From positions 744,001 to 808,000 of the forward strand of contig NZ_CP094972.1 in assembly GCF_025985425.1 (NCBI RefSeq): a stretch of DNA of 64,000 bases, written 5' to 3'. The position numbers and the translations under genes are program-made. This document shows, one piece after another, positions 16,353 to 46,512 of the stretch (position 1 is the stretch's first letter; the number at the start of each line of letters is the position of its first letter). The notes under the pieces are model-generated. The model had not been told where the DNA came from. It ran no database searches and saw nothing but the letters and a program-made list of their open reading frames with translations. This DNA is from Entomomonas sp. E2T0. Its GTDB lineage: Bacteria > Pseudomonadota > Gammaproteobacteria > Pseudomonadales > Pseudomonadaceae.

Positions 16353-16646
16353 TTATTCATCTTTTTCAACTTCTAATGTTAAAGAGCTTAATGCCTCAAA
16401 TAACGTATTAGCATCATTTAATAAATAGCTAGCAACCACTGACAGTACTGCTGTGTTATTAGGAGATGAGCCTTTAAAATCATGCAATATATCTAGTAGA
16501 TTAAGAATAGCTTGTAGTCTTGCACTGGCGCACTCATAAATGGCGTCCATAGGTGCATTAGCATCGTAATATAAAACATTTTCACTATTACCCTGTGAGG
16601 CTGGACTTAAGGGAATAAAACGGGGAAATTTTGAGGGTTTAGTCAT
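16353..16646 (-). CDS. small DUF3077-like protein, copy 1 of a leader-linked paralogue pair
   Basis: This 97-residue protein is a paralogue of the gene at 45823-46113. The two share SQGNSENVLYYDANA and a following helix-rich region (DAIYECASARLQAILNLLDI here). The pattern resembles Pseudomonas DUF3077 proteins, which are of unknown function; I assign that tentatively. Conservation is strongest in the N-terminal 60 residues and weak at the C-terminus. The ATG is preceded by AAGGA 14 bases upstream and by the structured leader annotated separately. Leader and protein are duplicated together, so they probably work as a unit. Confidence 0.65.
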   Translation of the reverse strand: MTKPSKFPRFIPLSPASQGNSENVLYYDANAPMDAIYECASARLQAILNLLDILHDFKGSSPNNTAVLSVVASYLLNDANTLFEALSSLTLEVEKDE

Positions 16647-16669: not shown

Positions 16670-16857
16670 GCCTCCCTTTTTAATAATTAGGGAGGCGGAA
16701 CTGTGTACAGGTTGGCAGACCGATACGCTCGGAAATCGGCACACTCCGAAGAGTGTCCCGTACACAGCCCGCCATAAAAAATACAGACGAACTGATCCGC
16801 GCAGACTAAGTGACTAGCTGCGGCCGAGCGTAAACGGGCTGCCAAGCCCGTACTATA
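16670..16857 (-). ncRNA. structured leader RNA, copy 1 (C4-like architecture)
   Basis: Written on the plus strand, a long stem (GGCGG plus CTGTGTAC at 16694-16708 with GTACACAG plus CCGCC at 16760-16773) encloses two hairpins (CCGAT/ATCGG, and ACACTC/GAGTGT). A flanking hairpin pairs GCCTCCC 16670-16676 with GGGAGGC 16690-16696. Two distant segments are complementary to it: ACGCTCGG 16725-16732 with CCGAGCGT 16824-16831, and TTGGCAG 16712-16718 with CTGCCAA 16839-16845. A copy at 46138-46334 keeps all pairings with changed bases. ACTATA at 16852-16857 is a possible minus-strand -10 box (TATAGT), making this the 5' leader of the small gene. The two-arm antisense layout recalls phage C4 RNA; family assignment is inference, and the strand is not proven. 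Confidence 0.65.
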
Positions 16858-16987
16858 GATTTTGCTATAGCATTTTCATTGTAAGACTAGCTAATAGGGT
16901 GAGCAAGTTTTTTATTGGATTAGGTAAAATAAAAGTGAAGATTATTTATGATTGATAAATAAAGGAAATATAAAAATAATTTTATTC

Positions 16988-33083: not shown

Positions 33084-35876
33084 TTAATGAGCTTCATCCC
33101 AGTTATTACCAATCCCTACATCCACTACTAAAGGCACCGCTAACTCAGCAGCTTCTGCCATTATTAGTTTTATCTTATCTGATACTTGTTGCAATTGATC
33201 TTCTTGCACCTCTAATACCAATTCATCATGTACTTGCAGAATTACTTTGGCATCTACTTTATCTTGTTGCAACCAAGCATCTACTTTAACCATCGCACGC
33301 TTAATAATATCTGCAGCGGTTCCTTGCATTGGGGCATTAATAGCTGTGCGCTCTGCACCACGGCGTACATTTGCATTACCTGCTTTAATATCAGGTAGAT
33401 ATAAGCGACGATCAAATAACGTTTCTACATAACCTTTTTCAGCAGCAGCTTCACGGGTACGCTCCATATAAGCTAGCACACCAGGGTATTTAGTAAAATA
33501 TTTATCAATATATTCTTGGGCTTCTTTGCGGTCTACACCTATTTGTTTAGCCAAACCAAAAGCACTCATACCATAAATAAGACCAAAATTAATGGCTTTA
33601 GCTTTACGGCGTTGGTCGCTTGTTACATCCGCCACTGATACACCAAACACTTCCGCAGCAGTTGCTCTATGTACATCTAACCCTTGCTTAAAGGCATCCA
33701 ATAAGCCCTTATCTTGAGCTAAATGTGCCATTATTCTTAATTCAATTTGTGAATAATCCGCCGCCAATAGTTTATAACCTTTAGGAGCAATAAATGCTTG
33801 CCTAATGCGCCGCCCTTCTGGAGTGCGAATAGGAATATTTTGTAAGTTAGGATCACTGGAAGATAATCGGCCAGTGGCTGTTACAGCTTGATGATAAGAG
33901 GTATGTATGCGACCTGTTCTAGGATTAATCTGCTCAGGTAAACGATCAGTATAGGTAGACTTCAATTTACTTAAAGTACGGTATTCCATCAAAACTTCTG
34001 GTAGTTCATAACCTTGTAAAGCAAGTTCTGCTAATACAGCTTCCGCTGTTGAAGGTTGCCCTTTAGCTGTTTTACTAATAATCGGCAATCCTAACTTAGT
34101 ATAAAGTATCTCTCCCAATTGCTTAGGAGAACTCATATTAAAATTCTGTCCTGCCAATTCAAAAGCCTTATTTTCCAAGGCTACCATTTTTTCGCCTAAT
34201 TCTTGACTTTGGCTAGCCAATAACTTCCCATCAACCAATGCACCATTGCGCTCAATACGCGCTAATACTGGTACTAACGGCATTTCAATTTCTGTTAATA
34301 CTTTAGCTTGGCTAGGTTCTTGTTGCAGTTTATTCCATAATACTTGATGTAGTCTTAAGGTAATGTCTGCATCTTCTGCAGCATAAGGTACTGCTTGCTC
34401 TAAACTTACTTGATTAAAAGTTAATTGTTTAGCTCCTTTGCCTGCAACCTCTTCAAAAGAAATAGTAGTTTCATCTAAGTAGGTTTGTGCCAAGGTATCC
34501 ATATCATGTCTTGAGGCAGTAGAGTCTAATACATATGACTCAAGCATGGTATCAAACTTAACACCTTGTACATCAATACCATAATGACTAAGCACATTCA
34601 TGTCATACTTAGCATGCTGTCCTACTTTAGCTATATTGGCATTTTCTAAAATAGGTTTTAATGCAGCTAATACCTTATCACGTGCTAATTGTTGTGGTGC
34701 GCCCATATAATCGTGAGCTACAGGAATATATACCGCTTCATAAGGTTTTACGGCAAACGATAAGCCTACTAATTCTGCTTGTTGTGCATCAATACTAGTA
34801 GTTTCAGTATCAAAGGCTATTAGTTCTGCTTTCTGTAATTTTACTAACCAATTATCAAAATCTTGCTGTTCAAGAATCATTTGATAATTACGAGTAGTAG
34901 ATTGTGGTTCTGATTGTGGTGGCTCTGCTTTAATTTCTTCCCCACCACCAAACATATCATTTTGCATAGGCTGTACTATTGGTGCAGGCTGTTTTGGTGC
35001 TTTACGCAATAGAACATCTAACCATTGCCTAAACTCTAACTTTTTATAGAGTTCTATTAAGGTAGCATCGTCTTCTTCTTTGCGTTGTAACTCTTCTATA
35101 TTAACGTCTAACTCAACATCCGTTTTAATAGTGGCCAATTGATAAGAAAGATAAGCCATATCCTTATGTTCTTCTAATTTAGCAGGCAGTGATTTAGCAC
35201 CACGAATAGGCAAAGTGGGTACTTTATCTAAATTAGCATAAATAATATCTAAACCACCCTGCAAACCTTGAATAAGCCCTACCGCTGTTTTTTCACCAAC
35301 ACTTGGTACACCTGGGATATTATCCGATTTATCACCCATTAATGCTAAGAAATCAATAATTAACTTAGGCTCTACCCCAAACTTATCAATTACACCTTGT
35401 GGATCAAGGGTTGAACCTGTCATGGTATTGACAAGTGTAATCTTATCATTTACTAACTGCGCCATATCTTTATCACCCGTAGAAATCACTACAGGCCTAC
35501 CTGTTTTGGCAGTTTCTAAGGCAAGTGTACCTATAACATCATCCGCTTCAACTCTATCAACACATAACAATGGAAAGCCCATTGCTTTGACACTTTCATG
35601 TAATGGCTCAATTTGTACCCGTAAATCATCAGGCATTGGTGGACGGTGAGCTTTATAATCAGCATATAACTCATCTCTAAAACTACCCCCTTTAGCATCA
35701 AACACAACAGCTATTGGACTATTAGGATATTGCTTAACTAAGCTTTTTAGCATATTCAGCACTCCCTTAACCGCCCCTGTAGGGATACCAGCAGAAGTCG
35801 TTAATGGTGGTAATGCATGATAAGCACGATAAAGATAAGAAGAACCATCCACCAAAACAAGAGGAGTTTGCGACAT
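33084..35876 (-). CDS. polA: DNA polymerase I
   Basis: Pol I fills gaps in repair and replaces Okazaki primers. The 930-residue protein has the 5'-3' exonuclease domain (about 1-290, LVDGSSYLYRAYHAL, GDKDMAQL, GDKSDNIPGV), an intact 3'-5' proofreading domain (AFDTETTSIDAQ, YAAEDADITLRL), and the polymerase domain with motif A DYSQIELRIMAHL, O-helix RRKAKAINFGLIYGMS and motif C QVHDELVLEV. Length and motif order are complete. It is divergent from the acyltransferase gene at 36023. Confidence 0.97.
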   Translation of the reverse strand: MSQTPLVLVDGSSYLYRAYHALPPLTTSAGIPTGAVKGVLNMLKSLVKQYPNSPIAVVFDAKGGSFRDELYADYKAHRPPMPDDLRVQIEPLHESVKAMGFPLLCVDRVEADDVIGTLALETAKTGRPVVISTGDKDMAQLVNDKITLVNTMTGSTLDPQGVIDKFGVEPKLIIDFLALMGDKSDNIPGVPSVGEKTAVGLIQGLQGGLDIIYANLDKVPTLPIRGAKSLPAKLEEHKDMAYLSYQLATIKTDVELDVNIEELQRKEEDDATLIELYKKLEFRQWLDVLLRKAPKQPAPIVQPMQNDMFGGGEEIKAEPPQSEPQSTTRNYQMILEQQDFDNWLVKLQKAELIAFDTETTSIDAQQAELVGLSFAVKPYEAVYIPVAHDYMGAPQQLARDKVLAALKPILENANIAKVGQHAKYDMNVLSHYGIDVQGVKFDTMLESYVLDSTASRHDMDTLAQTYLDETTISFEEVAGKGAKQLTFNQVSLEQAVPYAAEDADITLRLHQVLWNKLQQEPSQAKVLTEIEMPLVPVLARIERNGALVDGKLLASQSQELGEKMVALENKAFELAGQNFNMSSPKQLGEILYTKLGLPIISKTAKGQPSTAEAVLAELALQGYELPEVLMEYRTLSKLKSTYTDRLPEQINPRTGRIHTSYHQAVTATGRLSSSDPNLQNIPIRTPEGRRIRQAFIAPKGYKLLAADYSQIELRIMAHLAQDKGLLDAFKQGLDVHRATAAEVFGVSVADVTSDQRRKAKAINFGLIYGMSAFGLAKQIGVDRKEAQEYIDKYFTKYPGVLAYMERTREAAAEKGYVETLFDRRLYLPDIKAGNANVRRGAERTAINAPMQGTAADIIKRAMVKVDAWLQQDKVDAKVILQVHDELVLEVQEDQLQQVSDKIKLIMAEAAELAVPLVVDVGIGNNWDEAH

Positions 35877-45822: not shown

Positions 45823-46113
45823 TTACTTTCTTTCAAATTCCGTGATTGAGGGATTTAGTTCTTCAAATAAACTATAAACATCATTTAATAATAGTGAAGT
45901 AGCTATAGATAATGCTGAAGCACTTGTACTTGTTATGGTTTTAAGTTCGTGTAACTCTTCCAATAAATCAATAACGGCTTTTAACCTTGCAGTTGCACAT
46001 TCATAGATAGCATCACGGGATGCATTAGCGTCGTAATATAAAACATTCTCACTATTGCCCTGAGAGCCATAGTTTAAAGGAAGAAAATGGGGAGAATTAG
46101 TTGGTTTGCTCAT
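45823..46113 (-). CDS. small DUF3077-like protein, copy 2 of a leader-linked paralogue pair
   Basis: A 96-residue paralogue of the gene at 16353-16646. Shared segments are GSQGNSENVLYYDANA, DAIYECA-ARL and the helix ending in LLxxLH; both have SLLLNDxxxLFE-like C-terminal helices (LLLNDVYSLFEEL here, YLLNDANTLFEAL there). The tail is acidic. Function unknown; the DUF3077 assignment is tentative. It is preceded by the second copy of the structured leader, which keeps its folding despite sequence change. Confidence 0.65.
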   Translation of the reverse strand: MSKPTNSPHFLPLNYGSQGNSENVLYYDANASRDAIYECATARLKAVIDLLEELHELKTITSTSASALSIATSLLLNDVYSLFEELNPSITEFERK

Positions 46114-46137: not shown

Positions 46138-46334
46138 GCCACCCCTCTTACCTCTTAGTAATAATGGGTGGCGGGACTGTGCACAGGTTGGCGGACCGAA
46201 ACGAGAGAATCGGCACACTCCGTAGAGTGTCCCGTACACAGCCCGCCATAAAAATTAAGCGCGAGCCGTGCTACCCGCAACTAATAAGATTTAGTCACGG
46301 TCTCTCGTTAATGGGCCGCCAAGCCCATACTATA
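46138..46334 (-). ncRNA. structured leader RNA, copy 2 (C4-like architecture)
   Basis: Copy of the leader at 16670-16857. The flanking hairpin is GCCACCC 46138-46144 with GGGTGGC 46166-46172 (copy 1 has GCCTCCC with GGGAGGC). Long-range complements are AACGAGAGA 46200-46208 with TCTCTCGTT 46301-46309, nine base pairs, and TTGGCGG 46188-46194 with CCGCCAA 46316-46322. Copy 1 uses ACGCTCGG/CCGAGCGT and TTGGCAG/CTGCCAA in the same places. The identical CGGCACACTCCG core and ACTATA box (46329-46334; TATAGT on the minus strand) are kept. The paired changes are strong evidence of selected RNA structure. Confidence 0.68.
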
Positions 46335-46512
46335 GATTTGCTATAGTTCTCTCATTGTAGAACTAGCTAATTGATGGAGCAAGTTTTTTGTTTTAGAGAA
46401 TTGATTTCTGCAAAGCTTAAAATTTATTACTCAATAAAAAAGAGCATCCATTAATTTTTTGAAAAAGGGTATTTTTGACAGTAGCACTAACAAAAGTAAA
46501 TTTTCATATATC

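What the first reader, a model, noticed from the sequence alone, without database searches (positions are those of the whole stretch)
16670..16857. Duplicated structured leader with two covarying long-range pairings
Two copies, 29 kb apart (16670-16857 and 46138-46334), each precede a paralogous small protein. In copy 1 ACGCTCGG pairs with CCGAGCGT and TTGGCAG with CTGCCAA; in copy 2 the same places are AACGAGAGA with TCTCTCGTT and TTGGCGG with CCGCCAA. A third stem changes from GCCTCCC/GGGAGGC to GCCACCC/GGGTGGC. Sequence changed while pairing was kept at three sites, which is strong evidence of selected RNA structure. The two-arm complementarity recalls phage C4 antisense RNA, but its link to a DUF3077-like small gene is not something I can place.
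Basis: partly seen in the sequence, partly recalled or inferred. Interest (0 to 1): 0.8.

Follow-up and report, generated by a model that had tools for sequence, protein, structure and literature searches.

The report
C4 antisense leaders with self-only targets
Both spots carry a phage-type antisense RNA switch (C4) that has kept a matching target only in the start of its own message and sits in front of a small bacterial protein of unknown function; it is a known kind of RNA in an unusual form outside any evident prophage.

Summary
Both copies are C4 antisense RNAs (Rfam RF01695, 65.3 and 63.7 bits, cut-off 45) on the MINUS strand. The genome holds 9 C4 loci: 5 precede this small-protein family, 2 precede type VI secretion VgrG genes. 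In the two genus sets tested (18 and 10 loci), C4 fits its own leader far better than other leaders. In five of six corresponding locus pairs of two genomes, b1 and b' changed in concert. Unlike P1 and the Pseudomonas-type sets, the window copies show no translation-blocking target a2/b2. Copy 1 has no detected intrinsic terminator, copy 2 a weak candidate. I infer that each C4 RNA represses its own leader by termination or processing; no RNA data exist here. The protein is not DUF3077 by profile search, but Pseudomonas relatives of it, and true DUF3077 genes, often follow C4 RNAs. New variant of a known kind. Side result: Salmonella IsrK is a c4-a1b1/C4 locus.

The parts
16901..16906 (-). copy 1: candidate -35 (TTGCTC); only 3 of 6 consensus positions
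   Evidence: read from sequence; the promoter scan did not list it
16878..16883 (-). copy 1: candidate -10 (TACAAT), 17 nt after TTGCTC; shared with copy 2
   Evidence: read from sequence; not listed by the scan
16852..16871 (-). copy 1: 5' hairpin H0 (GCTATAGC..TATAGT), first hairpin of c4-a1b1
   Evidence: c4-a1b1 match 16884-16831, 34.4 bits, below cut-off 46.7; covariation
16834..16851 (-). copy 1: hairpin H1, loop carries target a1 (TTGGCAG, 16839-16845)
16824..16831 (-). copy 1: target b1 (ACGCTCGG)
16797..16823 (-). copy 1: hairpin X directly after b1, conserved as structure rather than sequence
   Evidence: 17 leaders: 77.6% of cells paired, 9 of 10 pairs changed on both sides, 0 to 8 of 500 shuffles as high by measure
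16688..16779 (-). copy 1: C4 antisense RNA; b' CCGAGCGT at 16725-16732, a' CTGCCAA at 16712-16718; predicted mature 5' end GGCGGG at 16773 by analogy
   Evidence: RF01695, 65.3 bits, E 2e-10
16670..16696 (-). copy 1: third stem S2 (GCCTCCC..GGGAGGC), sharing GCC with the C4 basal stem; by my reading the counterpart of the stem whose loop holds a2 in Pseudomonas-type loci
16353..16646 (-). copy 1: small protein, 97 aa, unnamed family
46377..46382 (-). copy 2: candidate -35 (TTGCTC)
   Evidence: read from sequence; not listed by the scan
46354..46359 (-). copy 2: candidate -10 (TACAAT), 17 nt after TTGCTC
   Evidence: not listed by the scan
46330..46346 (-). copy 2: 5' hairpin H0
   Evidence: c4-a1b1 match 46360-46308, 25.9 bits, E 1.5e-4, below cut-off
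46311..46328 (-). copy 2: hairpin H1 with a1 (TTGGCGG, 46316-46322)
46301..46309 (-). copy 2: target b1 (AACGAGAGA)
46266..46300 (-). copy 2: hairpin X
46250..46279 (-). copy 2: weak terminator-like hairpin plus T run, overlapping the 3' arm of X
   Evidence: one found, 0.4 expected by chance
46164..46253 (-). copy 2: C4 antisense RNA; b' TCTCTCGTT at 46200-46208, a' CCGCCAA at 46188-46194
   Evidence: RF01695, 63.7 bits, E 5.1e-10
46138..46172 (-). copy 2: third stem S2 (GCCACCC..GGGTGGC)
45823..46113 (-). copy 2: small protein, 96 aa, 53% identical to copy 1

Best explanation
Each copy is a self-contained unit: promoter, structured leader (a1 in a hairpin loop, then b1), C4 antisense RNA, small-protein gene. 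By analogy with P1 and Acinetobacter, a short C4 RNA is cut out of the transcript by RNase P at GGCGGG. Its loops a' and b' then pair in trans with a1 and b1 at the 5' end of new transcripts of the SAME unit. This represses the unit before the ribosome-binding site is involved, because the second target a2/b2, which overlaps the start region in P1 and Pseudomonas-type loci, is missing. The likely step is premature termination in the leader, as described for P4 CI RNA with seqA, or a switch between two exclusive folds (a1/b1 paired in cis with C4, versus C4 folded and excised). SHOWN here by sequence: the C4 fold, own-leader complementarity, concerted change of both partners, absence of detectable a2/b2. 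INFERRED: transcription, RNase P cutting, trans pairing, repression, and which of the two steps operates. The role of the small protein is unknown; it stands where P1 has icd and ant.
For: C4 above cut-off. Own-leader matching: 18 small-protein loci z=-11.8, 0/2000 permutations, own leader best in 16/18; 10 VgrG-type loci z=-6.8, 0/2000, best in 10/10. No clear a2/b2 in the same two sets: own best in 2/18 and 2/10, 39/2000 and 344/2000 permutations as low; four Pseudomonas-type sets (n=12, 19, 31, 14) show both sites, 0/2000 each. Six pairs of corresponding loci in two genomes: in five, b1 and b' both changed and each still fits its partner, swapped combinations being 4 to 12 kcal/mol weaker; the sixth stayed alike. 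A pattern for the small-protein type of a1 hairpin finds 5 places in the own genome, all at the five small-protein C4 loci; reversed control 0; VgrG-type hairpins are outside that pattern. In 77 Pseudomonas-type loci an intrinsic terminator lies between b1 and C4 in 46; an antiterminator accompanies 45 of these and overlaps b1 in 42. The Gifsy-1 IsrK unit, for which a terminator and readthrough are reported (PMC4825925, sections 6, 12, 21 read), has the same c4-a1b1/C4 anatomy. The free leader is predicted to fold with a1/b1 paired to C4 (C4 basal-stem index 0.05; 0.49 when a1/b1 is blocked; 18 loci).
Against: No transcript, processing or repression data. No intrinsic terminator found in copy 1 and only a weak one in copy 2; only 5 of 32 genus loci have one, two of them antirepressor-type prophage loci by my reading, so termination would have to be Rho-dependent or absent. 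The -35 is poor and the promoter scans missed it. In the folding test the C4 stem index exceeded 0.5 under blocking in only 8 of 18 loci and S2 stayed high in both states, so the two-fold switch is weakly supported. L014 has lost a1/b1 but keeps C4 and the gene. Specificity is not perfect: 8 (own genome, 8 loci) and 13 (sister genome, 14 loci) non-cognate combinations lie within 3 kcal/mol of the cognate one, most of them on weak VgrG-type leaders. The downstream test in the small-protein set is not wholly flat (39/2000).
Confidence: 0.6

Rival explanations
1. The C4 RNAs mainly act in trans on foreign targets, such as the C4-type leaders of incoming phages (immunity), and a1/b1 only limits their own production.
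For: Many copies with different specificities per genome (9 and 15). C4 units before antirepressor-like genes, by my reading of the proteins, exist in the genus (L011, L012). Proposed as one option for Acinetobacter C4-like RNAs (PMC5320573, passages and section 16 seen).
Against: The downstream gene is kept with the RNA: 19 of 34 genus loci carry the small-protein family. No phage record matched the window protein (E up to 0.01) or one Pseudomonas relative (E up to 0.001). Foreign RNA targets were not searched for.
Confidence: 0.2
2. A cis-only RNA switch: a1/b1 pairs with a'/b' inside one transcript, and no free C4 RNA acts.
For: The cis-paired fold dominates in prediction (minimum-energy folds show b1:b' in both copies and a1:a' in copy 1). 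Cis pairing would give the same covariation as trans pairing.
Against: In Pseudomonas-type loci and P1 the same C4 has a second, downstream target at the RBS, which fits an RNA that is released. A processed C4-like RNA is inferred from read coverage in Acinetobacter (PMC5320573, section 16), and an RNA of about 80 nt (STnc1160) is reported at the Gifsy-1 locus (PMC4825925, passages).
Confidence: 0.15
3. A classical P1-type C4 operon in which C4 blocks translation at an a2/b2 site on the small gene's RBS.
For: Membership of RF01695; position before a small gene as with icd; a faint downstream signal in the small-protein set (39/2000).
Against: Own downstream region is best in only 2 of 18 loci, against 9/12, 17/19, 27/31 and 13/14 in the Pseudomonas-type sets; the S2 loop, where a2 sits in Pseudomonas-type loci, is AT-rich here.
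Confidence: 0.05

Closest known systems
C4 antisense RNA of phages P1/P7 (Rfam RF01695) with the immI operon
   Same: C4 fold, a'/b' loops, upstream a1/b1 in the same relative place (annotated 'putative' in P1), order leader-C4-small gene
   Different: P1 also has a2/b2 before icd, annotated as repressing icd ant translation; the window copies show none. The downstream gene is neither icd nor ant.
c4-a1b1 motif (Rfam RF03163; Weinberg 2010)
   Same: two hairpins, second loop carries a1
   Different: window copies score 34.4 and 25.9 bits, below the cut-off of 46.7
IsrK / STnc1160 of Salmonella prophage Gifsy-1 (Rfam RF01394)
   Same: the IsrK interval scores as c4-a1b1, isrK and C4 in that order; that C4 is STnc1160 is my inference from position and size
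   Different: IsrK has a reported terminator; copy 1 scores 36.5 bits (cut-off 50), copy 2 gave no match at E up to 1
Phage P4 CI RNA with seqA/seqC
   Same: antisense RNA processed from the transcript it controls; upstream target; premature termination (as summarised in PMC4825925, section 21)
   Different: no sequence comparison was made here; the mechanism of the window copies is untested
Acinetobacter baumannii Group 1 C4-like sRNAs (PMC5320573)
   Same: many C4-like copies in one genome (21 reported) with differing a' loops
   Different: the section and passages read report no own-leader target and no downstream protein family; Region 1 showed very limited similarity to P1 there

Membership tests
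C4 antisense RNA (RF01695) | covariance-model score at or above the gathering score | tested here: met
   65.3 and 63.7 bits versus 45
C4 antisense RNA (RF01695) | a' and b' loops complementary to a target in the same operon | tested here: met
   a1/b1 upstream
C4 antisense RNA (RF01695) | released from a precursor by RNase P | not testable with these tools
   GGCGGG is present at the predicted 5' end; no RNA data
P1-type translational C4 operon | second target a2/b2 overlapping the RBS of the next gene | tested here: not met
c4-a1b1 (RF03163) | score at or above 46.7 bits | tested here: not met
   34.4 and 25.9 bits, E 3.9e-7 and 1.5e-4
isrK (RF01394) | score at or above 50 bits, with terminator | tested here: not met
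   36.5 bits copy 1, none copy 2; no terminator found in copy 1
DUF3077 (PF11275) for the small protein | profile match or profile-profile homology | tested here: not met
   no match in 16 members; hhalign probability 0.7%, E 0.077; DUF3077 profile hits no genus ORF
P4-like attenuation | antisense-induced premature termination | not testable with these tools
   no transcription data; intrinsic terminator in 46/77 Pseudomonas-type but 5/32 genus loci

The most novel reading that the evidence does not exclude
A phage immunity RNA has been domesticated into a set of self-recognising chromosomal switches. Genomes of this genus carry 2 to 15 C4 units whose paired specificity sequences diverge so that most antisense RNAs fit their own leader best. 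They work through a1/b1 alone and control both a family of small proteins and type VI secretion spike-effector modules, one of them on a probable 10-kb plasmid.
Probability: 0.4. Interest if true: 0.72.

Novelty: new variant of a known kind. Interest (0 to 1): 0.5.

Why it matters
The upstream target a1/b1 is marked only 'putative' in P1, where a2/b2 can mask its effect. Units that keep a1/b1 and lack a2/b2 let one measure its function directly. The C4 link to DUF3077 genes, to an unnamed small-protein family and to VgrG modules suggests that C4 regulation reaches beyond prophage immunity. If IsrK/STnc1160 is a C4 unit, published IsrK data have an alternative reading: IsrK could act as a sponge for C4 (the IsrK authors consider and argue against a related idea; PMC4825925, section 21).

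Tried and rejected
MAFFT-based pair counts for b1:b' failed because of length differences in the b segments (46.9% paired); replaced by the alignment-free permutation test. A Pseudomonas-style attenuator was looked for in the window copies and not found. DUF3077 homology was tested and not established. The AlphaFold model of the small protein (two sequences only, mean pLDDT 67, pTM 0.51, two helices) gave a best PDB match at E 0.69 and says nothing about function. A search for named relatives of the window protein in genome contigs found none. Phage records gave no match. Other VgrG genes of the own genome: 10 loci scanned, no C4; three further full-length VgrG matches were not scanned. I did not scan the window for phage genes with PHROGs; absence of a prophage is judged from the Pfam hits seen. 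Literature: DUF3077, DUF6124: one paper, unrelated by its passage; C4 RNA with Pseudomonas, prophage, antisense: two papers; c4-a1b1: one paper; C4 terms with vgrG or type VI secretion: 24 papers, 20 listed; the one on an sRNA repressing type VI secretion concerns AbsR28 and contains neither 'C4 RNA' nor 'C4 antisense', PMC11796373, passages; RF01695, RF03163, C4 antisense RNA: 18 papers, 16 listed, none titled on these links. Only open-licence full texts are held, and supplements (including that of Weinberg 2010, where c4-a1b1 is presumably described) could not be read. The terminator/antiterminator reading of a1/b1 may therefore already be in print.

Full report
WHAT IS THERE. Both places hold a C4 antisense RNA on the minus strand: 16779-16688 (65.3 bits) and 46253-46164 (63.7 bits), cut-off 45. 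Read 5' to 3' on the minus strand, each unit is: candidate promoter TTGCTC-17-TACAAT (not listed by the promoter scans); hairpin H0; hairpin H1 with a1 in its loop; b1; hairpin X; C4 (basal stem, two hairpins, loop b', bulge a'); stem S2 using the C4 3' tail; a ribosome-binding site; a gene for 96-97 aa. The genes are 53% identical. Of the other window genes given to Pfam, several are housekeeping genes (UvrD, pyrophosphatase, ScpA/ScpB, DNA polymerase I), so the copies do not lie in an evident prophage; the window was not scanned for phage genes. The element is 53-54% GC in a 35% GC window.

THE PAIRINGS. P1's GenBank record marks the same two sites upstream of c4 as 'putative' targets and marks a2/b2 downstream, with repression of icd ant translation. 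In the window copies c4-a1b1 (RF03163) matches below its cut-off: 34.4 and 25.9 bits, E 3.9e-7 and 1.5e-4; isrK (RF01394) matches copy 1 at 36.5 bits, below 50, and copy 2 not at E up to 1.

DATA SET. The own genome has 9 C4 loci. The four genomes of the genus have 34 (9, 15, 8, 2). In the family, 123 of 198 genomes have at least one; six reach 21, where the first look stopped scoring. I analysed all 34 genus loci and 90 family loci; the latter come from the top-scoring part of the list and so are biased to good C4s. After removal of near-duplicates 109 of 124 remained. The window's genus was not identified.

COVARIATION. In 17 genus leaders (L014, with a truncated leader, left out; X364360 had gone as a near-duplicate) C4 plus H0 and H1 pair in 99.3% of cells; 16 of 36 pairs changed on both sides; 0 of 500 shuffles as high on four of five measures, 5 on the fifth. 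a1:a' pairs in 98.3%. Hairpin X pairs in 77.6% with 9 of 10 pairs changed on both sides. S2 is weaker. b1:b' was misaligned. The alignment-free test compares the best duplex of each C4's a' and b' with its own leader and with other leaders of the set. Genus small-protein loci: n=18 (L014 included), z=-11.8, 0/2000 permutations. Genus VgrG-type loci: n=10, z=-6.8, 0/2000. Four family sets: n=12, 19, 31, 14, z=-6.6 to -14.8, 0/2000 each; own leader best in 9, 11, 22 and 10. Six pairs of similar loci in two genomes were compared. An 84% identical autotransporter supports correspondence for L003/L018, and a 97% identical UvrD for L002/L010, although four other flanking proteins of copy 1 and three of copy 2 were not found nearby. 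For L005/L024 the listed neighbouring ORFs look alike; the other three pairs rest on leader similarity (78-90%). In five of the six, b1 and b' both changed and each still fits its partner, swapped combinations being 4 to 12 kcal/mol weaker; in L006/X364360 they stayed alike.

WHAT IS DIFFERENT. The same test downstream of C4 shows a2/b2 in all four family sets (z=-7.0 to -17.0; own best in 9/12, 17/19, 27/31, 13/14), but hardly in the genus small-protein set (z=-2.1, 39/2000, own best in 2/18) and not in the VgrG-type set (z=-1.0, 344/2000, 2/10). Genus loci L011 and L012, antirepressor-type by my reading, keep a2/b2-like sites. In Pseudomonas-type loci a2 sits in the loop of a stem formed by the C4 tail (read); the window's third stem looks like that stem with another loop. 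An intrinsic terminator lies between b1 and C4 in 46 of 77 family loci; an antiterminator hairpin accompanies 45 and overlaps b1 in 42. Of 32 genus loci 5 have one. So the Pseudomonas-type anatomy predicts C4-triggered attenuation, and the window copies have lost that terminator or made it unrecognisable. Copy 2 has one weak candidate, against 0.4 expected; copy 1 has none.

MECHANISM. Own-leader matching without a2/b2 suggests that selection acts on pairing of C4 with its own leader. A pattern for the small-protein type of a1 hairpin, up to 3 mismatches, finds only the five small-protein C4 loci in the own genome (reversed control 0); it does not cover VgrG-type hairpins. Within one genome specificity is good but not perfect: cognate mean -22.1 and -22.0, non-cognate mean -12.2 and -12.3 kcal/mol, with 8 and 13 non-cognate combinations within 3 kcal/mol of the cognate. 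The full leader is predicted to fold with a1/b1 paired to C4 and the basal C4 stem open (index 0.05 on average, 18 loci); blocking a1/b1 raises it to 0.49, above 0.5 in 8 of 18. I favour repression at the leader, by termination or by processing, and cannot decide between them. P4 CI RNA with seqA is the working analogy (from PMC4825925, section 21).

ISRK. In the isrK interval of Gifsy-1, isrK (79.3 bits), c4-a1b1 (48.1) and C4 (69.0) all exceed their cut-offs. The IsrK paper (abstract, sections 6, 12, 21 and passages seen) reports a short terminated RNA, readthrough, and a processed RNA of about 80 nt (STnc1160), discusses P4 CI/seqA and whether STnc1160 acts at the IsrK terminator, and contains none of 'Citron', 'phage P1', 'C4 RNA' or 'C4 antisense'. 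That STnc1160 is the C4 RNA is my inference from position and size.

THE GENES. Genus loci by content: 19 of 34 small-protein family, 7 VgrG, 8 other. In the own genome these are 5, 2 and 2. L007 is VgrG-DUF4123-VasX_N followed by a DUF6708 match just below its cut-off, a type VI secretion spike, adaptor and effector module. L008 lies on a 9,996-base contig with an RPA replication initiator, so probably a plasmid. Of 16 VgrG matches in the own genome (one a fragment), 2 have a C4, 10 were scanned without finding one and 3 were not scanned. The small-protein family has no Pfam, NCBIfam or PHROG name. A profile of genus sequences finds relatives in 14 of 90 family C4 loci (E 1e-3 or better among 1116 ORFs). 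With a wider profile it occurs in 34 of 119 family genomes, 3 of the genus among them, and in 5 of 194 genomes drawn from the order, 4 of them of the same family. Of 20 of the 30 loci fetched, 12 have a C4, 10 of them within about 250 bases. True DUF3077: 14 of 20 loci scanned (of 21) have a C4; 31 of 45 named Pseudomonas C4 loci have a DUF3077 gene starting within about 500 bases; three of the 45 ended within 200 bases of C4. The pattern used for those 45 is exact, so they are not a random sample.

VERDICT. Known RNA class, clear structure, an a1/b1-only variant, and gene links I did not find in print.

Noticed in passing
L133 (Gifsy-1, NC_010392) 34131-34329, minus strand: The IsrK sRNA locus scores as c4-a1b1, isrK and C4; IsrK would be the terminated a1/b1 leader and STnc1160 the C4 RNA. 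The IsrK paper's main text does not mention C4.
   Followed up: partly
L115 (own genome), L116 (10-kb contig), L119, L120, L123, L124, L125 (sister genome): C4 units directly upstream of VgrG; one locus read by Pfam is VgrG-DUF4123-VasX_N with a DUF6708 match, and one unit is on a probable plasmid with an RPA initiator.
   Followed up: partly
L114, L121, L122: C4 units before a 411-419 aa protein (apparently interrupted in L121); the one scanned has no Pfam match; same leader type as the VgrG units.
   Followed up: partly
L117 (own genome 1609583 and 1610373): Two C4 plus small-protein units in tandem about 790 bases apart with different b1/b' sequences, suggesting duplication followed by change of specificity.
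   Followed up: partly
L074, L078 (Pseudomonas-type genomes): DUF3077 genes without C4 lie next to PrrF RNAs.
   Followed up: no
L113 (own genome 1951817): C4 copy with a partial direct repeat of its upstream region and a 70-aa gene; neighbouring ORFs look phage-like by eye (not scanned); a b2-like site overlaps GGGAGCT.
   Followed up: no
L014 (sister genome): A small-protein unit whose leader has lost a1/b1 while C4 and gene remain; a natural test of a1/b1 function.
   Followed up: no
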